Part shown: positions 114 to 21,496 of the stretch, piece by piece
Position numbering within the stretch: position 1 is the stretch's first letter
Layout: each line of letters opens with the position of its first letter
DNA from: Pigoraptor vietnamica
Lineage: Eukaryota > Opisthokonta > Filasterea
Length of the DNA stretch: 21,496 nt
Assembly (NCBI GenBank): GCA_943704525.1
Contig: CALSCQ010003150.1
Coordinates: 1-21,496 of the forward strand
Direction: 5' to 3'
Notes under the pieces: generated by a model
What the model was told of the DNA's origin: nothing
What the model saw: the letters and a program-made list of their open reading frames with translations, nothing else
Databases searched by the model: none
Position numbers and translations under genes: made by a program

Positions 114-197
114 AGGGCACTGTCGTGGGCATTTGTGCAACACTCTGCTCACGACACACCGCAATGGCGTGCTTGAACGCGCTCTCTCCCTTTGCAG

Positions 198-3100
198 CGC
201 TGGACGGCGTTCTCGACGAGCTGCGCATGTGGAATTACGTGCGAACGCCGCAGCAAATTCTGTCGGCGTGGAACCGCACCGTAGATCCCTCTGAACCGGG
301 CCTCTGCCGTTACTACCGGTGGGTGCGCAGTTATTACACACTCGCATTCGCACATGCATGGCGCATAGTACCCTCCGATTGTGTCGGTAGTAGGTTACCG
401 TGCGATTGCTGTACCAACCGACGCGTTTCTCTCGCTCTGCAGCTTCGACGACGTGACGACGACGACACCCCGTGCGCTGGACCTCAGCAGCGCCGGGACG
501 AAGCCGACCGTCGGCCGCCTCTCCGACAGCCGCAACGTCCTCAGCTATTCGTCCGCGCGGAGCTCTCGCCCACCCACACGCCCGCAGCCCACGTACTCGT
601 CTGCGCCGTTGGTCGGTTCCGGCAACATGATCGTCACCACCACCAATTTTGGGGACTCTGCCGCCGTCTCGATCGGCGCCTTTGACGCGGAGGGCGATGC
701 CATCACAGCGACGGCGCTCACGCTCCCGACGTCCGGGTCGATTTACGCGGGGAGTTCCGCGGCCGGTTCGCCGCTCATTGTGTCTGGCGCGATTGCGGGC
801 ACGTCGACGCCGGCTGTCGGCGGGGCCAAGTGGTACTCGTTCCCCGTGTTCTACCAGCCGACCGGACAGCCGTCATCGGACTCGTTCAGCGTCCGCTTTG
901 ACGACGGCACGAACCAGGTCACGTGCACGGTGACGGTGCAGGTTCGCCCGGCGCCCGACAGCACGCCGCTGAACATCAACGTCACGCTTAAAGAAGACAC
1001 TCTCACTCCGCTGGCCATGGTGCCCCTCGGCGCGTACGGACAGACGCTCACGGGCTACGTCATGCAGCTGCCGGGCAGTGGGCGCATCTACCAGGTACAC
1101 ACACGCACGCATGCGCGTTAGCTGTTTCGCGGGGAAGCCTGTCCGTCGTGGCACTCTCTGCTTTCACTTGTGCTCATTGCGCCCTTTGCACGCGCAGACG
1201 AGCTTCTCCTCTGCTACAAAGCGCTACGATTCAATTCAGAGCGACACGTCTCTCCTCACTGGTATCGCCGCCACCAACACGGCCATCACCGATGTGCGCG
1301 GCCTTGTCCTCTTCAAGCCCGCGCAGGACGAGAGCTCGGCACCCGGCGTCCCTTATGCCTCGATCAAGGTGCAGCTGAGCGACCCGAAGGCCGCCAACCG
1401 CTCCACGCAGGCGACCGTCAACTTCTTTGTCACGCCGGTGAACGACGCGCCGCTCGGCGTGAGCGCGCAGGTGCAGGTGCCCCTCGTGGGCGGACATCCG
1501 CAGCCGATTGCGCTGAAGCTCAACTCGACGGATCCGGACACGAACTTTAGCCCGCGGCCTTTCTTTAGGGTCACTGTGCCGCCCAAGTTTGGGAGCCTGT
1601 ACCAGGCGCGGATTGGTGGGTGTTTGCGGAAGGGGCGTTGAGCGCTTGCGCTTTGGAAGGAGAAGGCCCTATGCATGTCAGTCCCCTTTCCAATTCGTTA
1701 TTCCGACTTGCGCTACGGAATGGGCACACGAGGAGACGTTCCTCACGCATTCGTTACGCCTTTGCACTGCAGCGTCGTCGAAAGTCGTGCCCGGCGATGT
1801 CGTCCCCGTGCCCGTGTACATTCCGACGGTGTTCGGCTACGCGAGCCGCGTGCGCAACGTGTCGTCGCAGTTCTCCGTGTGCGGTCAGCTCTGCTCCATC
1901 CAGCCGATAGACTGCATTGAAGGCCGGCTCACGAACCAAATCGCCGGTTGCACGAAGAACGCATGGCACGCCACGCAGATCCTCGGGCCGCCGGACGTCT
2001 ACCCGCGCTACGGAGGTGCGGCGCTGTCTGTGCGTTGTGCATGCGTGCGCTCTGTTGTGCACCATGTTCTTTGTGCCCGCTTCACTTACATGCGCTGCGT
2101 ATTGCGTGCGTCGCACCGTGTACGAATTTGCCTGCTCACTTGCGCACTCGTCGCTGTTGCCCCATCGCAGACATCAAGGAGGTGCGGTCGATTGTCGCTC
2201 TGCAGGCCACACGCTGTCTGCACACATTCCACACAAACACGCGCACAAGCGGAGCATTCACTTATGCACATCACCCGCACACCACATCGCGCTTTTCATG
2301 TCGAGCGATTACCGGCGCACTTTGCACGTCACTAAGCACCCGCACGCCCCTTGCGTTGTCGCTTGCAGAACCCCCTTGCGATGTGGTTTGCAGAACTAAT
2401 AAGCACCCGCACGCCCCCTGCGTTGTCGCTTGCAGAACTGGGAGCCCCTTCTCAACCGCGGCTTTGAGTTTATTGAGCTCGAGTACGGCATCGACATGTA
2501 CATTAGCGGCATTCTCATCTACGAGACGTTCAAGCCGGGCTCCATTGTCCGGGTGCTGTCGGCGTCGGAATACAGGGGTAAGTGCTGCGTGCCGTTGCTG
2601 CGTGCCTTCCTCTGAACTGCGTGGCAGCGGACGCTGTTCTTGCTCTCGTGGCCCCTCCTCCCTCCCCCCTCTGTTCGTGCGTGTGCGCACCATGCCTTGC
2701 CTCCATTCACCTGACCTACTTGTGTTGCGCTGTGCAGCCTTCATTTCACCGCGTGTACCTGTGCGTGTTGTGCGCCTTGCTCTTGCCTTCTCTCTTCTCA
2801 CCCGTGTGCGCTTGTGCGTGCCGCGCAGGAATGGACACGCAGTGGACCGTCCTGTGGCAGGGCGCACCGGCCATCCAGCCGGAGAAGGCGCGCATCTTCT
2901 CTCCGCCCCTCTGCGCCTTCCCATTTAAGGCAAGGTTTATCCGGATCGAAATGAACACGGGCGCCGTCCCTGGGTGGGTGCCATCGCAGAGCATCACCGC
3001 GGCAAACTGCGGACGGAGGCACTCGTGCGTTGTGGTTATGTGCGCCTGGAACTCATTTCTATTGGCGTCTTCCCGTGCAGCTGGAGCTCGATTGATGCCG

Positions 3101-4590
3101 TTCAGCTGACGGGCACCCTGGACCTTCCTGTTGGTACCGTTTCGGACGCACTCGCGCGCGTTGTGTATGTGCCGGCGCGGGGCATTCTTCCATCAGGCGC
3201 AGGGCAGAGTAAGTGGCGCACAGTGTAACGTGCTCCCGTTCCCTCTCATGCACGCGCCCTTCGCTTATAGCCAATGGCCGCATGGCCTTTGGGTGTTGGT
3301 ACCACTGCGTCACACTCTTCCCAATTCCGAGTAACCCTTGCGAATGTGCAGCGGCTGTCTTCGACTCGTTCTCCTACCGTGTGTCGGACTGCGAGGCCGA
3401 ATCGCCCGTGGACTCGACGATCTCCCTCACGCTCGCGACCGACACGGCTGTCGGAAGTGGTGGGTGCGGCGATTGTGTGCGGCCCATGCGCCGATGGACA
3501 CCAGATTGCAGACAGTGGCAACGCAGACAGCCATAGATAACACCGCGATTGCCGGCAGTAGTATATGGAAACATGGCATACGTGTCACTGAACTGAGAGG
3601 TCGTTCTTAACCTTGCGCCATGTGACAGCTGCCGCTTCGACGCCATTCGCCACTTTCACCTCGTCGTCATCCTCCGAGAATTCGTTCATTGCGGTGAGTA
3701 GAACGAGTAACGCACGCGCGCCCGGCCCTCCACACTGGCACACTCTTGCTCGTACAGCACAGTACTTGTTGCACACCCTGCCCACTCTCTTAGCTCCGTT
3801 TCTGTTTCAGATCCCCCTCTCGACGGCCGCCAGCCACCTCTCCCAGTCGCTTGGCGTGGCGCTGTCCACAGTGAACGCGTCCTCGATGACCCTCAAGTAC
3901 CTTGGCCAGACGTCGTCGCTCACTCTGCGGCCCATCTCCGCGGCCACACTTAAGTCGCTCGGCGCCAACGCGGCAAGTGTGGACGCGCTCTCCTTCCCCG
4001 GCACGAATGCGTTCGACACGGCCCTCGCGGACGTCGCCGCCTTCGTCAGCGCGCTCAGCGCATCGTCCATGGCGACCCTCCTGGCTGTGTCGCCCCTCGC
4101 CCCGGGTGACGTCATCCCGGCATCAGTGCCCGCCGTGATTGCGACGGGCTCGGGATCGTCGACCATTTCGGCTGCGATGACTGCGCAGGGCGTGTCGTAC
4201 ACGATTGCCGTCAACGTTGCCGTGGGAGGGAGCGGTGGGGTGTCGCTGACGCGCAGTGCTTGTGTGTCCCGAAAATCTCTGTTTGCGCCGATGTGTGGCT
4301 GACTGTTGTAACTTGGTTAACGCAGCGGTCGTTCCGTCGTCGTCCTCTGACAAGAAGTATGTCATTCCGGTCGCTGTGCTGGTGCCCCTTGCGGTGGTCA
4401 CGGCCCTCGTGGTGGGCTTTTACTTGCGCGAGCGCAAGATCAAGGACGAGATGTCGAAGAAGGTTCGTAACACACGGTGCACACGCACACATATGCACGC
4501 ACGCTGGCGCGCACACACACACACGCACGCACGCACACACACACACACGCACACACACACACACACACATGCACATACACGCATTTTTAC

Positions 4591-4641
<51 letters not shown>

Positions 4642-7246
4642 CACACACACACACGCACACACATACACACACACACATGCACACGCAACGCGAATCTGTG
4701 TGCGTACTACTCATGCAATCATTGTGCGGTCAAGTGACGATCTTGCCCCCTCGCATTCCGCAGGCGATGGACTGGCTTGTGGCTTTCAATGAGCTCGAAA
4801 TTCTCGAGAAAATTGGCGAGGGCTCGTGGGGCGCGTGCTACCGCGGGCGATTCCGCGGATCCGAGGTGCGCTGGAGGCTCCGTTTAGATACTCTCTCCCC
4901 CCCCCCCCCCCCCCCCCCCAAACACACACACACGCAGACAATCTCTTTGTGTGCGCGCGAGTGTGTAAGCTGACGTTCAGCGCGCTCGTGTCGGTGCCGC
5001 ACTGACGCTTTCCACTGTTGCTCCCTTGCGCAGGTGGCGATCAAGATGCTCAAGCTCGTCGGACAGACGCAGCTGCAGCGAGCGCTCGGCGACCAGCAGA
5101 ACCTCAAGGAGACCATTTTTGGGCTGGACATTGAGGTGCGCTTGATAATGCATGATCCTCGCGTGACAGCGTAGGTATAAGAACGCACGCACGCATGCAC
5201 GCACATGCACACGTACACGCACCGCACACACCGCAACGAGTGCACGAATTCACGCTGTAGTCTTCCTTTCTGACACTCGCTGCCCGTTTGCAGGCCACGC
5301 GTCTCAAGTCTGACAAGAAGGGGTCGAAGTTGCTGCGGCTGTCGAGCATCCGTTCGCGCTCAAGCAAGAGTGAGTGCATGTAACACATAAGCTCGCGCCC
5401 TTTCGATATGTACCCCTCTCCTCTCTCTCTCCCTCTCGAGAGCTAACATTCCGTGTGTCGTCTGCAGAGAGCAAGTCTGGCTCTGCTTCGGACTCGTCGC
5501 AAGCGTTGACGTCGTTCTTGGGCGAGATTCAAACGATGACCTCTTTGCGCCACCCGAATGTCATCCTGTTCATGTACGTGCGTTTGTTGTGGGACTGTGA
5601 AGTCGTCTGTATGGACACACACGCGCCGCTGACCCTAGTCGTCTGCATGGACATACACGCGCCGCTGAGATGGCGGGTCCATTGTCTGTCCGTGAGCTTT
5701 ACGTGGGTCGGTGTACACTCGAAATTCTAATCCGGCATTTGCTGCAGGGGCGCGTGCCTCGAGTCCAACACGCCGTGCATTGTCATGGAGCTCATGAAGA
5801 TGGTGCGTGCGTGTGCGTTGGCGTGTGTGCGTGCGTGTGCATGTGCGTGAAAGTGTGCATGGGTGCGTGTGTGCGTGTGTTGCGTGCGTGTGCGTGCATG
5901 TGCATGGGTGTGTGTCTGTGCGTGCGTATGTGTGTCTGCGTGTTTGTGCTGCCTGAAGAATTCGTCTGTGCACCTGTGTGTGATTTTAGTCTCATTCTCA
6001 CCCAACACCCGAATGCACTAATCGTCGGTGCTACCCACTTGCTGTTACTCACTCGCCCGCCCTCTTCCGCAGTCGCTGCACGACCTCTACACGAACCCCG
6101 CCGAGATGTTCCCCTGGCAACAGCGATACTCCGTCATCGTCGACACTGCGCGCGGAATGGCCTACCTGCACGCCTTCAAGCCCGCGCCCATCCTCCACCG
6201 CGACCTCAAGAGGTGCGTACCTCGCACACAACTGCGCAGCGCCGTCCCTCACTTGCGACGATACGTTTGTCGTGAATTTGACTCGCGAACTGCGTCACGC
6301 TGCGCCTCACACGCGCGTTATGACAGCACATGTCATGCAAATTGGAAATTGTAAATGTTATGTGTGACGTCGTCGTGCGACGACGTGCTGATTTTCATCC
6401 CCTGCGCTTGTGCAGCCCGAACATCCTGCTCGACGTGCACGGTCGCGCGAAGGTGTCGGACTTTGGCCTCACGATGCTCAAGGAGAGCGACCCGAAGGGA
6501 AAGCAGGGCGCCAGCGAGGAGTCGACGGTGGCCGCGGGCTCGCCCATTTGGATGGTGCGTGCGTGCGCGTGTGTGCGCATGTGTGTGTGTGTACGGGTAT
6601 TGTGTGTGCCTGTAGGTGTCTTGCTGTCCGTGTTCATTTCTTCGCGTCTTCCCCAGTTTTGCATCTTTGTTTTTTGTTGTTGTGAACATCGTTTGGTCGC
6701 CTCCTTCTTCTCGCGTATTTATATTTGATGTGCCCAATCTAACATCGGCATTGCGCAGGCACCCGAGGCGTTGCGGTCGGAGCCCGTCACTGAAAAGTGC
6801 GACGTTTTCAGCTTTGGTGAGCTCCCCTCTCCCCCCCCCCCGCACACACACAAACACACACACAACCTCCTCCCTCCCCCGCACCGCATGTGATGCTTCT
6901 CGCTGCATACGTTTTCACCTTTATCCAGTCCCTTTTTGTGAGTTCGACGGCTCAGCACCGGACTGCAAAATTGACATTGCCTCCCTCCGCAGGCATCACA
7001 ATGTGCGAGGTCGCCTCTCGCCAGCGCCCGTACCACGGCTTCAAGGGCCACGCCCACGCACTCCTTGTGCTCATCTCGACCGACCCGAAGTGCCGCCCTG
7101 AGATCCCCGCCGACACGCCCCCCGCATTCTCCGAACTCACGCGCATGTGCATTGAGCACTCGCCCGACGACCGCCCGTCGTTTGCCGAGCTCCTTCCCAA
7201 GCTCGAGGCCCTCTCCAAGGGCACCAAGTGGGCCGAATCGCGGTAG
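198..7246 (+). CDS. Receptor-type TKL protein kinase, 5' partial
   Basis: Single-pass membrane kinase, 1207 residues visible. Exons: 198-318, 443-1094, 1198-1615, 1773-2015, 2171-2181, 2436-2577, 2829-2973, 3081-3208, 3352-3459, 3629-3693, 3811-4234, 4326-4462, 4764-4865, 5034-5135, 5294-5369, 5468-5573, 5748-5802, 6073-6212, 6416-6554, 6759-6816, 6993-7246; all GT/AG and all keep frame. Domains by visible residue: LamG end (LDELRMWNYVRT) 1-55; cadherin/Ig-like repeats about 70-400, with the PVNDAP signature; FBXL4-type discoidin-like domain about 415-595 (PDVYPRYGD, IYETFKPGSIVRVL, WTVLWQG, FIRIEMN); another Ig-like repeat; Ser/Ala-rich stalk; transmembrane helix about 830-851 followed by RERK; kinase about 870-1190. 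Kinase motifs are all present: IGEGSWG, VAIK (K902), helix-C E977, HRDLKSPN (D1055), DFG (D1073), WMAPE. HRDLKSPN points to TKL, thus Ser/Thr specificity. An active surface receptor is inferred; the ligand is unknown. Stop is TAG at 7244-7246. Confidence 0.93.
2171..2181 (+). other. 11-nt micro-exon of the receptor kinase gene
   Basis: The flanking exons end in phase 1 (2015) and start in phase 0 (2436), so they cannot be joined directly. The short segment after CATCGCAG and before GTGCGG restores the frame and adds Asp-Ile-Lys-Glu (the Asp codon is split over the junction). This completes the PRYGD...W motif expected in the FBXL4-type discoidin-like domain. It is a deduction from frame and family pattern. 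Confidence 0.72.
2333..2438 (+). repeat. Duplicated 3' splice-site segment
   Basis: A 39-nt segment at 2333-2371 recurs at 2400-2438 with one mismatch. Each copy ends in the acceptor-like TTGCAGAAC, and a third such site lies at 2388-2396. The intron before exon 2436-2577 therefore has three tandem acceptors. Only the last gives the family-consistent reading: the first shifts frame, and the second is in frame but meets TAA at once. Confidence 0.88.
4512..4682 (+). repeat. Compound (AC)n tract in intron 4463-4763
   Basis: About 170 bases of nearly pure alternating AC/GC purine-pyrimidine sequence with single-base interruptions (AT, AA, GC). It fills most of the intron between the transmembrane exon and the first kinase exon. 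Long His-Thr or Cys-Val reading frames across it are microsatellite artefacts. Confidence 0.95.
4897..4919 (+). repeat. Homopolymer C run (23 C)
   Basis: An unbroken run of 23 cytosines in intron 4866-5033 of the kinase gene, followed by an AC-rich tract. The length may be inexact, because homopolymers of this size are error-prone in sequencing. Confidence 0.95.
5601..5668 (+). repeat. 36-bp tandem duplication in intron 5574-5747
   Basis: Bases 5601-5632 recur at 5637-5668 (period 36) with two mismatches over 32 bases. The repeat lies inside the intron and leaves coding sequence untouched. High identity suggests a recent replication-slippage or small duplication event. Confidence 0.88.
5803..5945 (+). 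repeat. GTGCGT/GT-rich tract starting at a splice donor
   Basis: The intron 5803-6072 starts GTGCGTGCGTG and continues for about 140 bases as degenerate GTGC/GTGT repeats. The tract begins at the donor itself, so the donor hexamer is copied many times downstream. A shorter version starts at the donor of intron 6555-6758. Confidence 0.85.
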
Positions 7247-7572: not shown

Positions 7573-7800
7573 CGTGCCAGTGTGCCGCCAGTGACTGTGT
7601 GTGCAGTTGACAAAGAGGATACCAACGAAGCTTTAGAAATTTGGCCAGTAATAAATTTAATTCCAATACATTTTTCATAGTGATCGAAAAACAAATAATT
7701 GGTTACACCGACGCGATAACCTTTGACACGGTGCTGACAGTGCGTGACACACACACACACACGCACAAACACACACACACATTCGTTACACTCACACATC
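7247..7800. other. Intergenic region after the kinase gene
   Basis: About 550 bases without a supportable gene. It holds the kinase 3' UTR, a possible AATAAA polyadenylation signal at 7650-7655 (about 400 bases after the stop, so weak), the GT run at 7491-7571 and an AC-rich stretch at 7746-7781. No RNA gene or conserved motif was seen. Confidence 0.6.
7491..7571. repeat. (GT)n microsatellite, about 40 units
   Basis: A pure GT run of about 81 bases in the spacer between the kinase gene and the GTPase-PIN gene. Frames across it encode only Cys-Val or Thr-His runs. Confidence 0.96.
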
Positions 7801-7825
7801 TATAAATACTGGCGCGCCATTCAGT
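7801..7825 (+). promoter_or_regulatory. TATA box and possible initiator
   Basis: TATAAATA at 7801-7808 lies about 145 bases before the ATG at 7952. A start-site-like CATTCAGTG is at 7818-7826, at a spacing below the usual 25-30 bases for its first part, so initiation slightly further downstream is also possible. This is the only clear TATA element upstream of a gene in this window. It was seen by eye; the transcription start is inferred. Confidence 0.6.
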
Positions 7826-7951: not shown

Positions 7952-10900
7952 ATGGCGAAAACGATGATGACGGCTCGCAATCCCAGGACTCCCCGCGGCG
8001 GACGGGGGCAACAAGCGCGACAGCAGCAGCCACCCACCAACCCGAACGGCGGCGGCGACAATGACATCACAGCACCGGTTGCTCGCGTGGCGCCGTCGCC
8101 GACGAACGCAACCGACGAGCAGGCCAGTGCCGCATCAGGCGTTCGGTCGGGGTCGATCGCATCGACAGCGTCGGCGCAAACCGGTGCGGGCGCACCTACT
8201 GACGACGACTGGGAGAACCAGTTGGGCGCGCTGCTCGCGACGTCGGCGCCTGGCGGAAGCACGAACAAGGTCAGGGAAGTGATCGACAACCTCGCGGGGA
8301 CGTACGCGACGCTTCGCGACAAGGCGTATCAGACGTCGGCGGTGCTTCTCCTCGGCATGAACCGCATCGGCAAGACGTTCATCATCAACCTCCTCCTCCT
8401 CCTCAGCTGCGTGACGCCCTCGCAGTACAAGTCCGAGGCGTTCAGCCGCGCCCGAGAGCAGTACCCTTCTGGACTGGAGGCGTGCGACGACGCCGAGCGC
8501 AACGAGGACGGCACCGCGGCTGCCGAACCGGAGATCATACGCGCCAGCGACATGGAGAACGAGTGCGGACGATACGATCCCACGGAAGACAAGCGGACGA
8601 CCTACGCAGTCTTGCGGTCGCACGCGGATCCCAACGGGGCGCGCATTAGCGACGACTGGGCGGGCTTCGTGCTGCCGAGCGCAAAGAGCTCGAATACCGG
8701 TACGACGACGGCGGTCCACAACCGCGTCTGTTACGGCTTCACGTTCCACGTGCTCGTCACGTACCAGTCGATCGAGTTCATCCTCAAGGTCCTCGCAAAG
8801 ATCGCGGCTGACAAGCTCGCGGATGCGAGTATCGACATGCTTTCGAGCGAGCGCTGGGCGCAGATAACGGACACGGCAATCGACGATCAGACGCCTGAGG
8901 ACCTGCAGCGGTACGTCGCCGCGCCGGAGACTATCCCGATTCACGACGACGTGCGCGCGGTCGCCGGAAAGCAGCGCGTGTACGCCGGTTGCGGCAAAGA
9001 CATGGACGAAGACCGCTGGTTCGTCCAGAGCGTGCTCCGCATCATTAACGCGAGATCCGAGTCTGATGAGGAGACGACTCGCTACACGCGACAGCGGTAC
9101 GTGCTGCAATCGATACGGACGTACTGTCCATGCGGCGTAGTGGACGGCGGCGTGCAGATTGACGACGCTCCGGGACTCAACGACGAGGACCCGCTGTCAA
9201 CGGCTGTCCTCCGTCAGAGCGAGGACGACACGATGACGCGCACGGTCGTCGCAGTCGTGACGAGCAGATTGAGCGCCAACGCGCTGCTTCTGCAACGGCT
9301 CCGCGAGTCCACGTTCACGCGCCGCCTCATGGCGGAACCGGAGAAGCACACTCTCAGCATCGTGCTGTACACGGAGAACTCGCCTGCCGGGGGCCACCTG
9401 TCCATGCTGGACGAAGACAAGGACTACGCCAAGTGGAGGCGCGAATGCGATATTAATCGCGACGATGCGCTCAGGAGGCTCCGCGGGCTGTTCAAGGATG
9501 TCTACCGCACCTGCCGCGGCAACACGGACGGCCAGGAAGAGGCGACAGTCGAGCGCATGCTGGGCCGCGTCAAGTTCGTGGCGGCGCACCCGGCCCTCTA
9601 CGCATCCCTTTGCATCAACGAAACGCTGCGGCGCCAGTTGGCCAGGGAGCATCCCGCCGATCCCCACTTCGAGGAGCGGCTGCTGCAGCGGACGCACGGG
9701 CGGGAGCTCGTCGGCATCTTCCAGGGTCTGAACGACACCCAGAAGTTCGCCGAGGCGCAGAGCGCAGTGCCGACGCTCCTCAGGGTCCAGCAGGCGGCCG
9801 CGGACGAGCTGCAGGCTGTGCTTCGGGCGGACGAGGACGACGCGAAGGATAAGATCCGCGTGGCCGAGTTCCCGGAAGACGCGCTCAAGCAGGCGCGTGA
9901 ACTGAAGCTCGGATCCCACAAGCTCAACGGTCAGGCACTTCAGATGTTCAAGGAATTCGTTATCGAAGAATGCAAGCGCTCTGGCGTGGACTTCGACAGG
10001 TCTTGGGGGGCGGCCGTCGAAGCATTCGCAGAGGCGTTGACGGGGGCGTGGTCGGACGTGTTGTGCGATTCCATGGAGGCGCGCTTGAAAGACAAGGGGG
10101 AGAGTCTGACAAAGGAGAACGCCAGCGACGCCTTCTCACCTCTCGCGAAGGGCGTGTGGCCCACATTCCCCGTGCGTGACGTCGTGTTCCAAAAGGGCGA
10201 GTCACCCGACAAGGAGATTCGCGCGTTTCTCGCGCAGCTGAGAACGGCTTTCGACGAGCTCAACGTGCGTCTCAAGGGCGACTTCGACCGCATCGTCGAC
10301 GCCAAACTGCCGGGCTTCTTCGAGACGGGTCGCAAGGCCGCGCCGGAGGATGTGCGCGCGCGCGCCGTGAAGATACGCCGCAGCTTCGTCGAAACTTCGC
10401 TCGGTCCCGCGCTCGAAACAAAGCGCGACGGGTTCTTCAGAAAGGGGCGCCGCGAGCGACTCAACGATGAGTGTCTGCAACGCGCGTGGCATAACGCCTG
10501 CGCACGCGCCGTGGAGGCGGATCTCGAGGCGTATGCGGACGTCGCACGAACGGCGAGGTCGGACATAGAGCTGCGCGCATCTCTGCCAATGGTATTTCGC
10601 CATACGATTTTCACCGCGATCACAAGATACTTCGTGGAGGCGATCAGGGCGACCGTGGATCGTCACGTGAAGGCGACGTGGAAGGAGATGGTCGGCGAGA
10701 AAGCGAACACCGGCCGAAAGTCGCACACGGCGGCACCGACCATGCGCCGGCAGGCGCAGCTCTTTTGCGGCCATCTCCTCGAGGAGCACAACAGACACAT
10801 TCGCGACGCTTCGAGAGATCGAACGGCGAGTGCAAGCGAGGACGACGACAACGTTTCAGTCGACGTCGCCGAACGCGTCGAGTATGCGCAGCAATGCAGC

Positions 10901-12998
10901 GAATACGCGGGAAGGCTCGCGCGCGAAATCGAGCTGTTTGGGGTGAGAATGAAGCAGCTGGAGGACTACGGCCGCGAGTTCGAGGAGAAGACCAGCCTCG
11001 CACACCGAATGCTCGACCTTACGCAAGCGTGCGACGTGCGTCTCGAGAGGAAATCGTGCCCTACGACGACGATCCTGCGCACACGCCCAGTCGCGATGCC
11101 GAGGTACCCCGGTCCCCGAAAGGAGGGCTGCCTTCGCGCGTCTGCTCCCGCCCACGCGCGCCAAGCCGAAGTGAGCCTCGACCGCGCACTGAGGGCGAGC
11201 GGACTCCGTCTGTGCGCCGCGGGCGACGGCAGCCTCTTCGACGCCCTCGTCACGTGCCTGTACGGCGATGACATCGACGGCGAAGAGCGCGCGCAGTTAC
11301 GGACGTATCTGCTCACAAAGGCCGTCCTGTGGCAGGCGATGGCTGTCCAGCGGCAGAAGACGCCCGAATCGTTCGAGAAAGCGAACGGCTTGGCGATCGA
11401 CCAGTGGACGGAGTACGCGCGAGGGGACGGCGCACTCTACGACGAGCAGCTTCTGCACATGATGTTCCAGATGGAAGGTGCGCGCACCAGCTTCAACGTG
11501 TGGGTGGCGAAGGGCAGCGAGGAACCGGCTCTCTACCAGATAACGTCGCAGCGGTTGACACGCGAGTACTTCAACATTGCCATTGTTGCGAGCGAAGGTG
11601 CGTAAAAAATGGCCGAGGAAGTGCGGAGAGAGCATGTTTGTGCGTGTGTGCGTGCGTTTCTGTGTAAAGCAGTGCGTCCACCGGCGTGTGTCTATGCATG
11701 CAAGTGCGTGCGGCGGGTGTATATGCTTGTGTATGTACATATATGCGTATGTGACTAATCGGCACAATTTTTCCGATTGCCACCAAAACTTACTTCTCTT
11801 ACCCTGTCCTTCAACAGACCCGACAGACGCGGCGGAACACGTTCCCCTGCGCCACACGTTCCGCGCCATCCGTCCGACACCCATCGTCGACGACAGCGAC
11901 AGCGAAGCCGCCGAGGACATCGCGCGGAAGCCTCCCAGCCGGCGACGCTCGCGTCCCAACCCTACGTCACAAGTGGTCAACGACGGGGCGTACGATGTCG
12001 TCCTCGATACGAGCGCGATCATACAGCGTAACTTCGAGGTTGCCGCGCGAAGAATGCTTTCGTTGGCGCAACACGGCGGCCACGTGATGCGCTTCGTCAT
12101 ACCGACTGTCGCCCGCTACGAACTGGCCGGCATCGTGAAGGACCCACGGCGTCGCGAGATGGCATCACAACGGATGCAGTTCGTGACGGCGATGCTCAAC
12201 AGCAGGCAGATGCGTCCTGAGCTCGTCATCGCGCAAGACAGCCTTGACGCCGCCATCCTCGCTCAAGAAGAACACCGTCGCAACGACATCATCATCGCAT
12301 TCGCCGCGCGCAATTGCGCCAAGCTGCGGCCGGGGCGTGTCCTCCTCTGGAAAGAGGACATGGCCCTCATAGCGCAACAGATCGCGCGCCGAATGGAGCC
12401 TCGTCCCGGCGCACCCCTCCCGTCCGTGAAGACTTCGGAGGAGATCGAGCGCATTCTGCAAGGCGGAAATTTCGTGCAACTCTTCGCCGAGGACAACAAC
12501 GCGAGGGACAGCGCCGCCAGGCGCGCGACGGATGGGCCCAACGCTCGGCCGCAGTGGCACAGCTCACTCGCGCATGCGACTCAAGCGCGACACGAGTGGC
12601 GAGAATCGGGTCATGGACTCAGGCATCGCACAGACAACGTGCCGCGGCGTCCAGGCGATGGGGACACCGGCGAACGAGAGGACGTTCGAGCACGGCGCCC
12701 GCGGGAAGAGGACGACGACTCGAGCGACCGACACGACAAGATACGCAGGGCAGATGTCCGTAACGAGCGCGTCGCCCCCAGTGCGGTGGACAAGGGGGCT
12801 CGTCGCGAGGCTACCGCTCAGCGGGTGCACGGGAACGTAGTCTCGAGGGATGCCGCGCCGGGCGACCGAAGGCACGAGCGAGACTCGGCAGCGACGAGGC
12901 CGTCGGGCAGTTGGTACTTGGACCACCCGCGTCGCCACGATCGACCGGACCAAGCGGACGACGGGGAGAGGGACGCGAAGCGTGCGCGCCGCTACTGA
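7952..12998 (+). CDS. Dynamin/NUGGC-like GTPase fused to pseudo-OTU and PIN nuclease domains
   Basis: Two exons, 7952-11597 and 11818-12998, give about 1608 residues. Residues 1-75 are Gln/Pro/Gly-rich. GTPase: P-loop GMNRIGKT (135-142), G2-like GTTTAV (about 250), G3 DAPG (405-408); pattern and length resemble dynamin-superfamily proteins of the NUGGC (SLIP-GC) type, but no clear G4 NKxD is visible. A long helical, charged region follows. OTU-like domain about 1075-1210: GDGS at 1091-1094 stands where OTU proteases have GDGNC, and Y1206 where the catalytic His is expected, so protease activity is unlikely. PIN domain about 1275-1400 has four acidic residues, D1279 (LDTSAI), E1317 (RYELAG), D1372 (RNDIII), D1396 (WKEDMAL), so metal-dependent RNase activity is plausible. 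The C-terminal 200 residues are Arg/Asp-rich and disordered, ending KRARRY, a possible nuclear signal. TATA and leader lie upstream; AATAAA follows the stop. Substrate and pathway are unknown. Confidence 0.85.
11598..11817 (+). other. Single intron of the GTPase-PIN gene, with in-frame stop if retained
   Basis: Donor GTGCGTAA follows a split codon (phase 1) and acceptor TTCAACAG precedes 11818, restoring frame. If unspliced, translation ends at TAA 11603-11605, leaving GTPase plus OTU-like domain without PIN. The intron is moderately GT-rich and lies exactly between the OTU-like and PIN parts. Confidence 0.85.
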
Positions 12999-13013: not shown

Positions 13014-13019
13014 AATAAA
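13014..13019 (+). terminator. Polyadenylation signal AATAAA
   Basis: A canonical AATAAA hexamer 16 bases after the stop codon of the GTPase-PIN gene (stop 12996-12998). A GT-rich stretch follows at 13040-13082, as expected for a downstream element. Confidence 0.65.
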
Positions 13020-14122: not shown

Positions 14123-16287
14123 TCACTTGAACTTGCTCGCAGCCAGCGCGTCTCGTAGCCACTGTATCATGTCGGGAGAGGCCGACAACCAAAGGGCATC
14201 GGGATCACGCAGCTCTGAGGCGCACGGAATCTCAAAGTCAATCAAGGCCTGCAGAATGTCCCGCCTGCCGTGCCCTCGAACAGCCAATCGTTAACGGGAA
14301 GGGGTCGTTCCACCAGCTCAATACCAAGCGCACGCTCGACTGCGAACGTGTCGTAGTTGACGGGCGCCCAGCTGTGTTTTGTCCAGAGGGGAAGCGGTAC
14401 GATACCACGATTGTTCGCAAGCACCGAGCGCAAAAACTGCATGTTGTTTACATACGACAGCAGGGACTTCACATGCGGACGCGCGCGCTCAATTGCGCCG
14501 GGGTGATGAGTCTCAAACCAACGCACAAAATTAAGGCGTCCATCCCCGAGTGCCGCGATGAATGCGCACTTCAGTTCCTCCTCGTCCAGCGAACTCCGCC
14601 CAAGCACCCAGCGAAACAGCCTCCACCGGCGCGATTCAACGGCCGAGGACAGCGACACGTGAAGACCGGGAAGCCGCCGGTCGATCATGAGCGCAAGCCC
14701 AATGTGCCCTCTCCGCACAGCCACTTCGAGGCACCGTGTGAAATTGAAGGGGTCACTCGAAGGATCACTCGACTTGCCACTGTCCACCGCACGCAAATTC
14801 ACGTCTATCATGTACGAGACCATGTCGTAGTGACCCTCCGCAGCGGCCTCTTCCTCAATACTCGCCTTCCAGCTAAGCGCCCCCATCGCGCTGGATACAT
14901 TAAACGCATCGTGCTCGCAGAGATGGCGAAGCATCGCAAGGTCGCCTCTCTTAAACGCTGGCGCAAGCCAAGCGTTGGCCATGTAAGTCCAGTTCTTGTC
15001 AGAATCCCGACGGTCGCCCAGCTGCTCTTTCCTGAGCGCAAGGACAAAGTCAACGGCATCGCGAGACAATTCAAACGACGGCGGTATTGAAAGACCCATC
15101 GACTCCATCCCAACGAACGAGGAATATTCCTGGTATTCCTCGTTAATGGGGGGCAACAGCATGCTGTACGTTAGGTACCCTTCTGCCTTCGCCCACGCGA
15201 GCGCATCCATCGCCCCGTACAAAAGTAACAGCTGCATAATCGTCGGCAACCAGTGACCATTCTTGACGTGCTGCGCCGCCAACTTGGCAGTGTCGTACTT
15301 TCCGCGCATGAGTAACACAAGGAAATCCGCAGCACAGCAGTGCCTCAGCAGCCCCAGGCCATGCATCTCGTCCTCCGCACACGCGCCCATTTCGCGGAGA
15401 CGCGCCGCTATCCGCTCGTTGCCGGCACGAAACGCAGCTGCCGTGGCTTCCGTCCTTGTGTCCGTTGCAAGCGCAGGAAAAGGCACTGGAGCACGGCTAC
15501 TGAATGGCGCGATCGAGATCGACCTCGGTGCCGGCGCAAGCGGCAAGAAGGAACAGCCGCCGCGACAACAGACGGTCGTCTTCCTCGCCCGTCGCCGTGC
15601 GTGACTTGCGCGCCTCCGTTAACACGCCCAAGAGAGAGTCACTGAGGCCCTCAGAGAAGAGAGCGTCGCCCACAACCTCCACAAAGTGCTCTGACGGAGT
15701 AACAAACGGAAGCACTCGGCCCACAAGAGCGGCGTCTCCCATAGTCACTGCCGCAGACGCTGCATCGCGGGCGGCGCCTGGGTACAACTCGAGGAACATT
15801 TCCGGGGGCGCAATGTCCAAGAGCGCACAAAGTTGCTCCCGATTCAGGCGTCTAAATTGAAGCTGGCGCCATCAACATGCAGCTCAGTCTTGGTCACATC
15901 CAGTGTCCGATTGCGCACGAGGAAAACGCACATGTCCAAATCGCTGCGCAGGAGCGCAAACTCGATGGCGTCGTTCGAGCAGTGCGCCACGCGACCGCGC
16001 TTGACCTCGTCCTCGTGGAGCAGCTGAATCACCTCGAGGTGCCCGCTCTTCGCCGCGAGGTCAATGTCCCAGTGACCGTACGGGCGATACCGCGACAAGT
16101 CGCCGACGACGCTGTCGTTGACCGTGTCCCTAATGCGGTCGAAGAAGTCGCAGAGTCGCTTGCACGTCGCGCGGAGGTGGCCCACGTCCGTGAGCGTGAA
16201 CCGCGCGAGCTTGACGAGGTGGACAAGCGCCTCCTCCGACAGGCCTAGAAGAAGCGACACGTCGACCGCGCCCACAGAGACGTCCAT
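14123..16287 (-). pseudogene. Ankyrin-type gene with F-box-like N-terminus, interrupted reading frame
   Basis: The locus starts at ATG 16285-16287 and its coding pattern runs to a TGA at 14123-14125, about 700 codons without a clear intron. The first 50 residues resemble an F-box (LSEEALVHLVKL, LRATCKRLCDFF). Degenerate ankyrin-type repeats follow (DLAAKSGHLEVIQLLHED, AAAEGHYDMVSYMI, CLEVAVRRGHIGLALMI). The longest continuous frame is 434 codons, ending at 14242; beyond it the ankyrin-like C-terminus continues in another frame. Overall there are about three frame interruptions, and no good GT/AG pair explains them. This is either a young pseudogene or an assembly with indel errors. Ankyrin/F-box families are abundant in amoebae; members also occur in their giant viruses, so the ultimate origin is open. 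A substrate-adaptor role in ubiquitylation would be the usual guess for an intact member. Confidence 0.7.
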
Positions 16288-16755
16288 TGCGACCGCGGCA
16301 TAAAGAGCGAAAGTGCACAGACGCGGTGAAAGGGGTAAGCGGGCGAAGTGCTGATTTTAAAAGGAAACTGCAGCCACTGAAAAACAAAGAATCGATTGCC
16401 TGAGCGAGAGGTCGGAAGAATCGCGGAAATGTTGGCGATGTTAGTGATTTTAGGCCGTGAAGTATGCAGGACGCCAGCAGCGCGCACAACATGCAAGTCA
16501 GGAGCCTACAAGCGAGTACGGCACACAATACAAAGACGACAAGGGCGCTGAAGAGAAAAGCTACTCTGCGGCCTTCAAAACTTCCACGCAAACTGAGCCA
16601 ATAATATCGAATCCTACGCATTTATCAGCCGATTGATGCGCCCGCAGCGCGACGCGCCACTTCCATGCCAGCATCCTGATCTCCCCGCCACTGCCTCAAG
16701 TGGTGATTCACCACCCGCGGCTGCCTCGAACGGCAAAGACGCCCCCGCGGTTGCC
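16288..16755. other. Spacer between COPB1 3' end and ankyrin locus
   Basis: About 470 bases between two minus-strand genes. It must hold the COPB1 3' UTR and the ankyrin promoter. A minus-strand GATAAA at 16621-16626 is the best polyadenylation candidate for COPB1, but it is not canonical. A degenerate 30-base repeat overlaps the COPB1 stop codon. Nothing else recognisable. Confidence 0.45.
16355..16362 (-). promoter_or_regulatory. Possible TATA-like element (TTTTAAAA)
   Basis: TTTTAAAA lies about 68 bases upstream of the ankyrin locus ATG on the minus strand. It is palindromic and off consensus, and it stands in a locally AT-richer patch of an otherwise GC-rich spacer. Weak call by position and composition only. 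Confidence 0.25.
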
Positions 16756-16783: not shown

Positions 16784-19700
16784 GTAATCTTGTCGCCGAG
16801 GCTCAGCGCAATGCCCTGCGTCTTGCTGCGTATGCGAATGTGGCCGGCAATCTTCCCCTCGGGCGTGCGCTCGATCGAGACGTTCGCAAGCGCGTCCTCG
16901 CCAAAGATGGACCTGAGGTTGCGCCGTCAGAAATTTGCCCACTCAGCGTTAAACAGTTCTTTCTCGAATGTCAATGACAAGTAAGATGCCACGAAGCACG
17001 CAGAAGCCGCACTTTGCAAGAAGGAAACACGGAACAGATATGCAAACCACGTCGATGGTTACGACAAATGCGATAGCACGCACACACACGCACCTGGCGT
17101 AGAGGTTCGCAGCGAGGAATCCACAGTCCCCGGCGAGCGCGCTCTCGGGCGTGAGGCAGCGCATGTTCGTTGCGCCGATAATGTGGCGAAGGTATTGGTT
17201 GAGGTCGGTGCACACCGTTGCCACAGCCACCTGCGCAATGGTACCAGAGGCACGAGTGGGGTTAGGGCCACCAAGTATGCAAACACACGCAGTGCACCAA
17301 AAGGGCAACGGAAACATACTCTCCCACAAACTCACATGCGCACCCAACGAGACATGAGACACGGGCATTACATCGCACGAAGGAAACAACGACAACAGAC
17401 GAACGTGCCACGCACCTTGTTCTCCCACTCAAACTCGACCCACATACGCCGGAAGTCCGTGTCGGTGCAGTCGCCGGGCGTGATGTAGTCCATGACGTCA
17501 ATGTGGATGTCGTTGAGCACCACGCAGTTGCGGTCGCTCGTGCTGCCCGTGAGATCGTACACAATGTTCCCAAAAATGATGCCGTTCTCCGTCGACGACA
17601 CCTGTGCATGTGCGTGCACGCGTGAGTCCAAATTCGCGTAGGGCCATGTGCACGAAGCGATAAATTGCGGAAGTCGACACAGGCTTCACGGCAAGGGTTG
17701 ACCAATAACTGCCACTGCGAAAAAGAGATGCCAAAAACAGTACGGACCTTCACGTTGGCGCGGATGTTGCAGAAGTCGTGGGGGCCGAGCGTGTAGGCCG
17801 TGGGCCGCTCCACGAGCTTGAGGTCGCCGAGGGTCGCCAGTTCGAGCGAGAGGCTCTGGAGGGTGTCGGACGTCTGATTGACCACGAGGACGTCGAGCAC
17901 AATGTCGTACTGGTTGACGTTGACGTAAGCCTCGGCGTAGACGGGGTCGGAGAAGCCGGTGAGCTGGAAGACCTGCATGCGTGTGCGTGCGATAGTAGAA
18001 TCGTCGCGTGAGCAGATTTGATGACACTAAGGGCACAGACAGACAACACGCAACGCACAGACGTCAAAGTCGAGAGTGCATTGCAAATGCTAGCGAGGCG
18101 CACCTTGCTGAGCTTCGACGCCGACTTGTCCTTGGACTCGTTGCCGCCCGTGGCTGCCAACAGGCTCGTCGTGAACACGTCCTCCTCGCTCGCACCCGCA
18201 GCAGCCTGTGACAGGGCCACAAGGGTCACCTCACCAAGAGATTAACAACAACTACAAAGCGAAAATAAAACAAAGCAAAACATAGAGTGGACGACAGCTC
18301 TCTACGCAGCGTACACAGGGATCGAGCCAACACCCCGTACGCACCTTGGGTCCGAGCTGGCGGAACGAGATGAGATCATCGGCCTGCACCGAAATGTTCG
18401 TCCGCGCCTTCTCAAGTGCCTCGGCGGCGCTTTCCGCCTGCTGCGTGCGCTGGAGCATCGCGCTGAACGCCTCCCTGCATGCGTGCTCAAACACCTCGAC
18501 CACGGCCGGGGTGGGTTCCGCGAGCGTGCGCAGGCACACAGCGAGGCGGTCGCGCGAGTCGTCGTCGATGGGCGAATCCGCAAGGCCGCTCTGACCGAGG
18601 TGAATGATGCTGGCGATCGCAAGGAGCGCCTCCGCCGACGCCTTGTGGGAGCGACGTGCAGCGTCGGGCGCACCGCTCGACGCGTAGATGCGAGAGTAGC
18701 GCAGGGACAGCTTCACGAGGGCGGCGCCCAACTGCGCAACCGAGGAAGAGAGGACGATTGAGCACAACTGCGTAAGACCATGCAGAGACCTAAAGGCAGG
18801 GCGCAGATTACACGCACAAAAATGCACACAAGCGACGCGTTCTGAGACACGCGGCACGCACCACGGCGCCAAGGAAGAAGTCGCCGGCCTTGATGAGGGA
18901 GCGCAGCGACGGCTTGTCCTCCGCCACCTTGCTCTCCACACCGCGCGACGTCACCGTCAGCGCACTCTGCGAGGCGTACGTGCCGTCGGACGCGAGAAGC
19001 CTGCGATTGCACACATGGGCGGTTAGTGACGATGCTGTGAGCACACTAGCGCGATAATAAATGCACATATCACCGGGAGAAAACAATGTCTAGACACTAC
19101 CGAAGAGTCTGCGCTTACACCCGCGCCGTTGAGAATGCATACTATCACGTGCGCACAATGCCGAGCACCACCAAGGCGACAGGGGCGGACGCACGCACCT
19201 GGCGGACGGCTGGGAAGGGGCGGCGGCGGCGGGTGCCTTGGCGGGCTCCGCGGGTGCGTCGCCAGCGGCCTCGCGAATCAGCGAGTCCACAATGGGAAGT
19301 TCGCCCAGCGACTCCTTGATGATGGACGTCGCCTGCGACAGGGGAGCAAGGGGCGCATCAGATCGCGACCACTCACGACCAACGACAGGCACAAGCCCAC
19401 ACGAGAGGAGCATGGGTTTCCCTTGGTGACGCACCTGCTCAATCTCGTCGATCGACTCGGCGTACTCGCCCGCAATCCAGAGGGCGACGCGGAAGACCTT
19501 CCCCGCCTTGATCTGCGGCACCGCCTGCAACAGGCCCTGGAGAATCTGCGGCCGCAGCTGCGCGTCCACAAAGAGCACGCGTAAGCATGGACGCAACTGA
19601 AGGGTCATGCCGCGGAATTGAAGCAGGAAAGCCCCGACACGCGCGGAGGACACAACAGAAGTGCTCACGGTGTGGATCGGGCATGTGTCATCCAGATAAT

Positions 19701-21269
19701 AACAGAGCGTGCCGATTGATACCGGCACAAGGCGATACGGAGATGGTGATTGATGGTGAGCAAGGGATTCCAGAGTGCAGACGGCCCACCTTTGGGAAGC
19801 GCTCAATGGCCTCGCGCACAAAGTGGACGACGTCCGAAGCAGAGGCGGCGTTCGTGTCGCCCACATAGTCCATGAGCATGGGGACGATGCTCGCCGCAAT
19901 CGCAGGGTGCTGCGGGGCGTGTGGCCGGAGGGTGAGATGCATGTGCGGGTGACTGTGCGCACGCACACACACACACACTCGCACGCACGCACATACGCTC
20001 GTACAAGTACGCACACGCACAAACAGAAGCAAGGAAATTTCGAAGTGATAATTTCAGAGGCAAGGCGGTTTCGGGAACGCACCTTGATGCCGCAAGTGTG
20101 CAGGGCCTGCACGAGCAGCTGCTTGTACTCGCCGCTCTTGTCAAAGTCATCGCCCGACGACGAGCGCGAGAGCTCCTTCTTCAGCACGAGCACGACCTGC
20201 GTGCCCAAAAGTCACCGAAATAGCGTCAGCCACGAGCCTATTACGGCAATACGCCGCAGAAGCCCCATGTTTGGAAGGACATCGTCGCGTGATGCTGGCA
20301 CTGCCACAGTGAGGCCATCCGATATGCCTCAAAGGAAAACGCACCTCCTCCACATTGCGGGGCGTGACGAGCTCGAGGACGAGCGCGAGCGTCTTCTTAC
20401 GGACGTCGAGGTCGGGTGCGGCAAGGACGCGCAGGATATCCATCACGACATCCTGCGGGGACACAGATGTGAGTTGTGGCGTTAGTCGAGTCAAAGTGGG
20501 CAGTCGGTGAGGCTGGTGTGAAAAGCCAATGGAGGTCGTACAAAAGAGCGACGATCGTAACAACAGAGCGGCAACACGGCCGAAATAAACGTCGTATAGA
20601 CGAAACCACGGCACGTGACGAAAACAAACAAACAAGTCCTCGCATCCGCACCTGGAGGACCTTCTCGTGGCTGGCCGTGCGCTTGAGCTCCGCGAGGCGG
20701 TCCAGCACAATCAGCTTGACGTTGTTGTCGCTCTCCTTCACGACGAGGTCAATGTACGTCGTCGCGGCCGCCTTGATCGCGGTGGGAGCCGTCGACAGCG
20801 TAATTAGCGTGCCAGCGGCGTCGTAGCGAACGGCCGCCGACTGCGCGTTGAGGAGTGTGTAGATGCAGCGGATGAAGCGCGCGCGCTCGGTCGGGTTCGT
20901 GCGGCACACCTGTGCGGGAGGGCCGTGCACGAGTACACGCAAATACAGGGTTATATAGCGACAAAGGTGTGAAGTATGCGCAATACACGAACGCACATAA
21001 CCAAACTCTAACCGCACCAAATTTAAAACGCACACGAACGGAACATCACAACAAAGTAAGGTGGCACACACGGACATAAGAAACACGCACATCCCACCAC
21101 AGCCCCACACCAACACCAGACGCACCTTGTGGATGAGCTCCACGATGATGAGCTGCATGATGTCACCAAAGTTCTGGACCTGGTCGATGACCGTCGCGAG
21201 GTAGTCGAGTGCGCGCGGCTGGTCCACGTGCACGAGCATCATGAAGGCGTTGCGCTTGCAGCTCATGTC
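16756..21269 (-). CDS. COPB1: Coatomer subunit beta (beta-COP), 5' partial
   Basis: Beta-COP is part of the COPI F-subcomplex that coats Golgi-to-ER vesicles. Visible: 790 residues in 14 exons, matching the animal protein from about residue 185 to the end. Exons in gene order: 21269-21126, 20909-20652, 20452-20345, 20196-20083, 19909-19790, 19596-19435, 19332-19199, 19000-18862, 18731-18345, 18205-18104, 17972-17748, 17601-17416, 17230-17094, 16912-16756. All are GT/AG and in frame. The N-terminal HEAT/adaptin trunk has [19 protein letters not shown] and [14 protein letters not shown]. The C-terminal appendage has [40 protein letters not shown] then [14 protein letters not shown], and ends EVIAA. 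An Ala/Pro-rich linker ends the exon at 19199, where animals have a charged one. Eleven of 13 introns are phase 0. The first exons, including the start, lie to the right of the window. Looks intact and essential. Confidence 0.97.
19957..20031. repeat. AC/GC-rich tract in a COPB1 intron
   Basis: About 75 bases of alternating AC and GC repeats in the COPB1 intron 20082-19910; in the gene's sense it is a GT/GC-rich tract. Same class as the intron repeats in the kinase gene. Confidence 0.85.
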
Positions 21270-21496
21270 CTGGGGACGGGGCGTCAGGAATCAGGAATGC
21301 ATCACGCGCACGCGCATTGCACCAAACACGAGAAAAAGAGAAACGAAGCGCACGAAGCGCACGAAACCGCGGAGAGAGCAAATATATTGACCTACACACA
21401 CACGGCAAGAAGAAGAGACGTGCTTTTGACGGACTGCACAATACAACGGTTGCGCACACGCAGCCTAGAGAAATTCTCCCTCCCCGCCCACCCCCC
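21270..21496 (-). other. Partial COPB1 intron at the window edge
   Basis: From the acceptor (CAG just right of 21269) to the end of the window no upstream beta-COP coding is recognisable in any minus frame. The upstream exon, expected to encode the HEAT repeats before the [10 protein letters not shown] motif, must lie beyond 21496, so this intron is longer than most others in the gene. Confidence 0.6.

What the first reader, a model, noticed from the sequence alone, without database searches (positions are those of the whole stretch)
7952..12998. Three-part GTPase / dead-OTU / PIN nuclease protein
One gene appears to join a dynamin-superfamily (NUGGC-like) GTPase, an OTU-like domain and a PIN ribonuclease domain. 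I know of no described protein with this set. A large NTPase coupled to an effector nuclease and a ubiquitin-system fold is the typical build of intracellular immune or RNA-surveillance proteins. A working idea is a GTP-driven sensor or oligomer that controls RNA cleavage, with the OTU-like part serving as a ubiquitin or partner binder. Function is inference.
Basis: partly seen in the sequence, partly recalled or inferred. Interest (0 to 1): 0.88.

Follow-up and report, generated by a model that had tools for sequence, protein, structure and literature searches.

The report
Amoeba NTPase fused to PIN-like nuclease
This is a real two-exon amoeba gene whose product joins a GTPase-like domain to an inactive-looking OTU-like part and a PIN-like nuclease part; the joining is conserved in two relatives in the same genome, but the OTU and nuclease labels are only weakly supported and the function is untested.

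Summary
The gene is real: 7952-11597 joined to 11818-12998, 1608 aa, with a strong coding signal. The genome holds two relatives: one nearly whole on contig C1057 with one in-frame TGA, and a decayed copy on C84. Both keep the order GTPase-like, OTU-like, PIN-like. C1057 has an intron at the corresponding place and phase. The GTPase part has an intact P-loop and DxPG and resembles a genuine SLIP-GC gene of the same genome more than two of its dynamins, but its G4 motif is lost. The PIN part has four acidic residues in order, and Pfam PIN_4 is its best family, below cut-off (16.2 against 21.9 bits); C1057 shows no PIN_4 match. The OTU part lacks catalytic Cys and His. No profile finds it, and one of three known OTUs of the genome aligns to it. 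Pattern-seeded scans of viral and prokaryotic contigs found no relative. Best reading: a nucleotide-controlled SLIP-GC-like scaffold with a pseudo-OTU adaptor and a PIN ribonuclease. Immune or RNA-surveillance function is inference.

The parts
7800..7809 (+). TATA-like box (CTATAAATAC) about 143 bp before the ATG
   Evidence: Read in the sequence. The two other copies also have a TATAAAA stretch upstream, though the alignment does not put all three in one column. Consensus only.
7952..11597 (+). Exon 1: basic/Gln-rich N-terminus, GTPase-like domain, helical-looking region, OTU-like region
8204..9586 (+). GTPase-like domain, about aa 85-545, 41% identical to C1057
   Evidence: SLIP-GC similarity
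8354..8377 (+). G1 / P-loop GMNRIGKT
   Evidence: GMNRVGKT in C1057
8699..8716 (+). Switch I / G2 candidate GTTTAV
   Evidence: GTTTAL in C1057
9047..9361 (+). Stretch (aa 366-470) that aligns with the SLIP-GC gene of contig C292
   Evidence: Score 62, z 5.7, 0 of 500 shuffles
9164..9178 (+). G3 DAPGL
   Evidence: Dynamin_N matches C1057 over this region, E 0.04, below cut-off
9368..9379 (+). Degenerate G4 position (YTEN instead of TKxD)
9587..11155 (+). Helical-looking region (by eye) of no known family; no DUF7605 match
   Evidence: no similarity to the C292 C-terminus (z -0.97)
11156..11590 (+). OTU-like region, catalytic Cys and His absent (GDGS-LF, YFNIAIV)
   Evidence: No OTU profile hit
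11598..11817 (+). Intron, GT-AG, 220 nt, phase 1
   Evidence: corresponding intron in C1057
11818..12998 (+). Exon 2: RHTFRAIRP linker, PIN-like domain, charged tail ending KRARRY
11979..12431 (+). PIN-like domain, about aa 1270-1420
   Evidence: Pfam PIN_4 E 0.013 to 0.027 on four slices
12006..12008 (+). PIN acid 1, D1279 (VVLDTSAI)
12120..12122 (+). PIN acid 2, E1317 (VIPTVARYEL)
12285..12287 (+). PIN acid 3, D1372 (RNDIIIAF)
12357..12359 (+). PIN acid 4, D1396 (WKEDMAL)
13014..13019 (+). AATAAA just after the stop codon, possible poly(A) signal
   Evidence: Read in the sequence

Best explanation
An amoebozoan protein, so far seen only in this genome, built on a diverged SLIP-GC/NUGGC-like large NTPase. 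The NTPase head and helical region act as a nucleotide-dependent switch or scaffold (inferred), the pseudo-OTU region acts as a protein-binding adaptor (inferred), and the C-terminal PIN-like domain is the metal-dependent ribonuclease effector (inferred from four acids in order and PIN_4 similarity). Shown here: the gene, its exon joining, the recurrence of the order in two relatives, P-loop and DxPG conservation, loss of G4, and absence of the OTU Cys/His.
For: Same order in the two relatives and a corresponding intron of the same phase in C1057; strong coding signal. GTPase segment to C292 SLIP-GC, local mode: z 5.7 (0 of 500 shuffles), C1057 z 4.7 (1 of 500), and 0 of 230 background tiles as high as the window, while the window gives local z of 0.2 or less with dynamins L012 and L013. 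C292 has FHA, Dynamin_N and DUF7605 over their cut-offs. Among 1261 sequences the GTPase-pair HMM ranks C292 first (whole-sequence E 0.19, best domain 0.0076). PIN_4 is the best Pfam family on 4 of 4 window slices of the domain, matching profile positions 1-117 of 132; for a family named beforehand, E 0.013-0.027 over 24,736 models is p about 5e-7 to 1e-6. C1057 PIN part to the C136 PIN: z 3.7, 1 of 500. OTU-like region to the C433 OTU: z 6.15, 0 of 500, 0 of 549 tiles; window to C1057 OTU-like region z 6.29, 0 of 500. Exon 2 of window and C1057: blastp E 1.7e-4, or 0.007 with composition correction; first 240 aa z 5.3, 0 of 1000.
Against: No curated cut-off is reached for any of the three domains, and the own-genome searches for Dynamin_N, OTU and PIN_4 do not list the window gene. 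C1057 slices show no PIN_4, and C1057 lacks PIN acids 2 and 3 by alignment. HMMs from the genome's own OTU, PIN and SLIP-GC sequences do not show the window gene among the 12 rows printed for each. In global mode the SLIP-GC similarity is weaker for the window (z 1.4 to 3.3; 4 to 63 of 500) and absent for C1057 (z -1.5 to 0.4), and hhalign saw only the P-loop. The window OTU-like region does not align with two of three known OTUs, and that of C1057 with none of the three; the OTU-pair HMM puts C147 at row 6 and C433 at row 23. Window PIN to C136 is z 2.7 (11 of 500) and to C1190 z 1.3 (67 of 500), with 6 of 426 tiles as high for C136. Without its first residues the exon 2 likeness falls to z 1.5 (91 of 1000). 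PDB sequence searches named no GTPase, OTU or PIN chain. PMC12709174 says PIN cores invariably hold a tetra-Asp motif (passage); here acid 2 is Glu. G4 is lost. No structure could be predicted.
Confidence: 0.42

Rival explanations
1. Scaffold only: the NTPase binds nucleotide weakly or not at all, the OTU-like and PIN-like parts are both pseudo-enzymes, and the protein is a docking platform.
For: G4 lost in both long copies; OTU Cys and His gone; C1057 lacks PIN acids 2 and 3 by alignment; motif 4 in the window is WKED, whereas the genome's own PINs read LLTDD and LLTRD.
Against: In the window copy the P-loop, DxPG and four PIN acids are kept.
Confidence: 0.3
2. Only the GTPase-like part is what it seems: the C-terminal regions are orphan domains that resemble OTU and PIN by chance.
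For: No family cut-off reached, own-genome OTU and PIN_4 searches do not list the window, PDB sequence searches name no OTU or PIN chain, HMM tests largely negative.
Against: PIN_4 is the best family on 4 of 4 window slices in near-full register; four acids in order; OTU motif order by eye GDG-LF, LR, DE-LL, NVWV, YFNIAIV; C433 alignment 0 of 549 tiles.
Confidence: 0.2
3. Two separate genes: a GTPase/OTU-like gene ending at TAA 11603-11605 and a PIN-like gene downstream.
For: The exon 1 frame runs two codons past the donor to a stop; there are no RNA data.
Against: A corresponding intron of the same phase in C1057, and a similar exon start in all three copies (RHTFRAIRP, RHTYRAIRP, RHKYCAIRP). 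I did not look for a separate start for exon 2.
Confidence: 0.05
4. A captured viral or mobile-element gene.
For: Fast-diverging copies, one with a stop and one decayed.
Against: Five viral scans and one prokaryote scan, all seeded by short peptide patterns, found no relative; neighbours look like ordinary host genes.
Confidence: 0.05

Closest known systems
SLIP-GC / NUGGC-type large GTPase (the C292 gene of the same genome; Dynamin_N + DUF7605; the name SLIP-GC for it is recalled)
   Same: P-loop, G3 and the stretch after G3 align in the same order
   Different: G4 lost, about 90 extra residues between P-loop and switch I, no DUF7605 match, OTU-like and PIN-like C-terminus, no FHA found
PIN_4-type PIN ribonuclease domain (Pfam PF13638)
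   Same: Four acids in order; best Pfam family
   Different: Below cut-off; motif 4 is WKED
OTU-family pseudo-deubiquitinase such as OTULINL/FAM105A (PMC7862380, passages read)
   Same: OTU-like motif order with the catalytic residues gone
   Different: Much weaker sequence support; fused to an NTPase and a PIN-like domain
KHNYN / N4BP1: PIN nuclease beside a ubiquitin- or NEDD8-binding domain (KHNYN PMC12709174, passages read; N4BP1 PMC11032371, title and start of abstract in a search listing)
   Same: General build: ribonuclease plus a ubiquitin-system part; antiviral in KHNYN
   Different: No GTPase in KHNYN's domain scheme, another PIN subfamily, another ubiquitin-binding fold; analogy only
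GBP-like and other dynamin-superfamily proteins of Dictyostelium (PMC8565484, passages read)
   Same: Large GTPases of amoebae with possible host-pathogen roles
   Different: No OTU or PIN fusion is mentioned in the passages I saw

Membership tests
SLIP-GC/NUGGC-type dynamin-superfamily GTPase | P-loop GxxxxGK[ST] | tested here: met
   GMNRIGKT aa 135
SLIP-GC/NUGGC-type dynamin-superfamily GTPase | G3 DxPG | tested here: met
   DAPGL aa 405
SLIP-GC/NUGGC-type dynamin-superfamily GTPase | G4 [T/N]KxD | tested here: not met
   YTEN; YLEH in C1057; C292 has TKTD
SLIP-GC/NUGGC-type dynamin-superfamily GTPase | Dynamin_N (PF00350) over cut-off | tested here: not met
   Window none; C1057 14.4 bits against 27; own-genome search lists neither
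SLIP-GC/NUGGC-type dynamin-superfamily GTPase | DUF7605 (PF24564) C-terminal region (association recalled; seen in C292) | tested here: not met
   No family on window 9560-11160; no similarity to the C292 C-terminus (z -0.97; C1057 z 2.0, 23 of 500)
SLIP-GC/NUGGC-type dynamin-superfamily GTPase | Pairwise similarity to a genuine member | tested here: inconclusive
   Local: score 62, z 5.7, 0 of 500; 0 of 230 tiles, best tile 60. Global mode weaker, absent for C1057; C292 HMM does not show the window gene among 12 rows
OTU deubiquitinase | Catalytic Cys in DGNCLF | tested here: not met
   GDGS-LF
OTU deubiquitinase | Catalytic His before the last strand (HY.., recalled) | tested here: not met
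   YFNIAIV; C1057 QFHVAIV has a His two places later than expected
OTU deubiquitinase | Pfam OTU (PF02338) | tested here: not met
   No OTU hit; own-genome OTU search does not list the window
OTU deubiquitinase | Pairwise similarity to known OTUs of the genome | tested here: inconclusive
   Window: 1 of 3 (C433, z 6.15); C1057: 0 of 3
OTU deubiquitinase | OTU fold | not testable with these tools
   Structure prediction switched off
PIN domain nuclease | Four acidic active-site residues in order | tested here: met
   D1279, E1317, D1372, D1396; C1057 keeps 2 of 4 by alignment
PIN domain nuclease | Pfam PIN_4 over cut-off | tested here: not met
   15.2 to 16.2 bits against 21.9 on 4 window slices; none on the whole exon or on 4 C1057 slices
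PIN domain nuclease | Ribonuclease activity | not testable with these tools
   No assay
Single three-part protein | Exon join conserved in relatives | tested here: met
   Corresponding intron and phase in C1057; order kept in the pieces of C84

The most novel reading that the evidence does not exclude
A new family of amoebozoan effector: a SLIP-GC-like NTPase that assembles on a trigger, recognises partners through a catalytically dead OTU domain and releases or positions a PIN ribonuclease. It would link dynamin-superfamily sensing to RNA cleavage in one chain, with the birth-and-decay of copies often seen in defence genes.
Probability: 0.25. Interest if true: 0.78.

Novelty: new variant of a known kind. 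Interest (0 to 1): 0.52.

Why it matters
If the labels hold, it would be a single protein that couples a dynamin-superfamily NTPase to an RNA-cutting domain through a pseudo-OTU. That would suggest how a unicellular eukaryote might turn a sensing or assembly event into RNA cleavage, and would give SLIP-GC-type GTPases a testable effector. Six literature searches bear on the parts or the combination. In their listings I saw no title or abstract start describing it. The library holds open-licence papers only, and the one paper holding all of PIN domain, OTU domain, GTPase and fusion (PMC3482391, on polymorphic toxins) was not opened.

Tried and rejected
Relatives elsewhere: viral scans with exon 1, exon 2 and the GTPase, helical/OTU and exon 2 alignments and one prokaryote scan gave none. 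Other family libraries on 7 slices: PHROGs gave hits of E 0.012 to 0.35 and NCBIfam two (0.025, 0.18), with no common theme; PADLOC gave none. Pfam also gave chance-level hits beside PIN_4 (ALGX E 0.046-0.068). So E near 0.02 alone is not evidence; I lean on PIN_4 because that family was named beforehand. PDB sequence searches named no GTPase, OTU or PIN chain. hhalign of the GTPase pair to the SLIP-GC gene found only the P-loop (26 columns, probability 6%). A first PIN pair slice misaligned at its ends and was replaced. An intron that would remove the TGA in C1057 was looked for by eye only: the one in-frame candidate I counted would delete a conserved stretch. Other in-frame joins of the window gene exist (3 combinations in the ranges tried); 11598-11817 is preferred from the C1057 comparison. 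A canonical dynamin was rejected: local z 0.2 or less for the window against L012 and L013, the two tested.

Rows dropped before counts: loci L001-L006, L015, L016, L021, L026, L027, L031 and L034 were left out as overlapping or source loci, and frames under 40 aa, frames of the window gene and C1057, and all of L022, L024, L025, L029, L030, the L008 + strand and the L028 - strand were also left out.
Full report
What was checked. The window is the whole of contig C1300 (21,496 bases) of a 32.5 Mb assembly of 1395 contigs. The genome's profilin has its three best PDB matches in 1acf, 1f2k and 1prq, which I recall as Acanthamoeba profilins, so an Acanthamoeba-like amoebozoan is likely. No call named the organism.

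The gene. A frame opens at ATG 7952 and runs to a stop at 11603-11605; a GT-AG intron 11598-11817 joins it in frame to a second exon ending at TGA 12998, giving 1608 aa. Codon-position GC in exon 1 is 0.643/0.465/0.807, the PIN part of exon 2 gives 0.688/0.455/0.759, and the intron is 49% GC. A 1285-codon open frame compares with a mean of 295 and a maximum of 447 in 100 simulated windows. A TATA-like box lies at 7800 and an AATAAA at 13014.

Relatives in the same genome. Searching the genome with exon 1 gave three places at E <= 0.001: the window, C1057 (32% over aa 7-1114, one TGA inside) and a short match on C84. C1057 reads past its OTU-like end into an intron of 84 nt (75 or 69 nt with two other in-frame donors), same phase, within a few residues of the corresponding place, and a second exon beginning RHTYRAIRP. 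C84 is a decayed copy of the C1057 line, with frameshifts, 82% identical in DNA over its longest block, and holding pieces of all three parts in the same order. The two second exons are alike by blastp at E 1.7e-4 without and 0.007 with composition correction over 173 residues (first 240 aa: z 5.3, 0 of 1000; whole exon: z 4.3, 2 of 1000). Much of that rests on the RHTxRAIRP start: without the first residues z falls to 1.5 (91 of 1000). A genome search with window exon 2 finds only itself at E <= 0.001, and one with C1057 exon 2 finds only C1057 and C84 at E <= 0.01. So the order and the splice are conserved, while the PIN-like part diverges fast.

GTPase part. G1, a switch I Thr cluster and G3 are kept in both long copies. 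G4 is not: YTEN in the window, YLEH in C1057. The window has no Dynamin_N match; C1057 has a sub-threshold one (E 0.04, 14.4 bits against 27) in the G3 region, and the own-genome Dynamin_N search lists neither. The genome holds a SLIP-GC-type gene on C292, with FHA (E 9.7e-11), Dynamin_N (E 5.2e-8 and 3.4e-6 on two exons) and DUF7605 (E 1.6e-15). In local alignment the window segment aa 241-481 scores 62 against it, z 5.7, 0 of 500 shuffles (C1057: 57, z 4.7, 1 of 500; a longer window segment z 4.2-4.4, 0 or 1 of 500). That is as strong as the SLIP-GC gene against dynamin L013 (z 5.9; against L012 z 4.1), while the window itself has local z of 0.2 or less with L012 and L013. In global mode the window gives z 1.4 to 3.3 and C1057 z -1.5 to 0.4. 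Against 230 background tiles none reached 62, though one reached 60. An HMM of the window/C1057 pair ranked the C292 protein first of 1261 sequences (whole-sequence E 0.19, best domain 0.0076). On the other side, hhalign saw only the P-loop, an HMM of the C292 GTPase did not show the window gene among the 12 rows printed, and the C-terminal halves do not align (z -0.97). NUGGC-like is therefore the best-supported label, but the protein fails G4 and DUF7605 and should not be filed as a SLIP-GC member.

PIN part. D1279, E1317, D1372 and D1396 sit in the order and context of PIN motifs as I recall them (VVLDTSAI, VIPTVARYEL, RNDIIIAF, WKED). Pfam PIN_4 is the best family on 4 of 4 window slices holding the domain (E 0.022, 0.027, 0.013, 0.013), matching profile positions 1-117 of 132, below the cut-off of 21.9 bits. 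Scanning the whole of exon 2 gave no family, 4 of 4 C1057 slices gave no PIN_4, and the own-genome PIN_4 search does not list the window. The window PIN aligns to the genome's C136 PIN at z 2.7 (11 of 500) over the first half and to C1190 at z 1.3 (67 of 500); C1057 aligns to C136 at z 3.7 (1 of 500) over the second half with its LLTDD motif and to C1190 not at all. Against background tiles the window/C136 value is reached by 6 of 426. The PIN-pair HMM puts C136 at row 3 (E 0.68), behind two chance frames. C1057 lacks acids 2 and 3 by alignment. PMC12709174 calls the tetra-Asp motif invariable in PIN cores (passage); here acid 2 is Glu, as in the EL motif of the genome's own C136 PIN.

OTU part. 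The order of elements fits an OTU domain by eye (GDG-LF, LR, DE-LL, NVWV, YFNIAIV; the reading is recalled knowledge). The catalytic Cys is missing (GDGS-LF) and the His is not in place. The window region aligns to one of the genome's OTUs, C433, at z 6.15 (0 of 500; 0 of 549 tiles), but not to C583 or C147; the C1057 region aligns to none of the three (best z 1.8, C147). No OTU profile finds it, the OTU-pair HMM puts C147 at row 6 and C433 at row 23, and PDB searches name no OTU. This is the weakest of the three labels.

Surroundings. Upstream on the + strand are sub-threshold pieces of a protein kinase; downstream on the - strand an ankyrin-repeat piece and the beta-COP gene. These look like ordinary host genes.

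How it may work. Inferred: a nucleotide-controlled head and helical scaffold assemble on a trigger, a pseudo-OTU binds a partner, and a PIN ribonuclease acts. KHNYN joins a PIN nuclease to a domain that binds ubiquitin and NEDD8 in antiviral defence (PMC12709174, passages), and OTULINL shows that a dead OTU can exist without binding ubiquitin (PMC7862380, passages). These are analogies, not homologies. The fast divergence, one copy with a stop and one decayed copy fit a birth-and-death family, which is common among defence genes but not confined to them.

Verdict. I saw no description of the combination in the listings of searches of an open-licence library.

Noticed in passing
L028 (contig C292 62500-71500), - strand: A SLIP-GC-type gene of the same genome carries an FHA domain before its GTPase (FHA E 9.7e-11, Dynamin_N, DUF7605 E 1.6e-15).
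   Followed up: partly
L007 4901-4903 (contig C1057), - strand: Single in-frame TGA in an otherwise open relative of the window gene; recent loss or an assembly error.
   Followed up: partly
L008 1250-5600 (contig C84), + strand: Decayed copy of the C1057 line with flank, missing about 1.3 kb of its middle.
   Followed up: partly
L008 2465-2791, - strand: Leucine-rich-repeat-like frame (by eye) inside the decayed copy on the other strand.
   Followed up: no
window 116-7100, + strand: Multi-exon gene pieces: a LamG-like stretch by eye (DGVLDELRMWNYVRT) and sub-threshold protein-kinase pieces at 6022-6725 (E 0.0024 and 0.0097); perhaps a receptor kinase.
   Followed up: partly
window 15847-16356, - strand: Ankyrin-repeat piece (Ank_4 E 9.3e-5).
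   Followed up: no
window 16952-21290, - strand: Beta-COP (coatomer) gene in several exon pieces (Adaptin_N, Coatamer_beta_C, Coatomer_b_Cpla).
   Followed up: no
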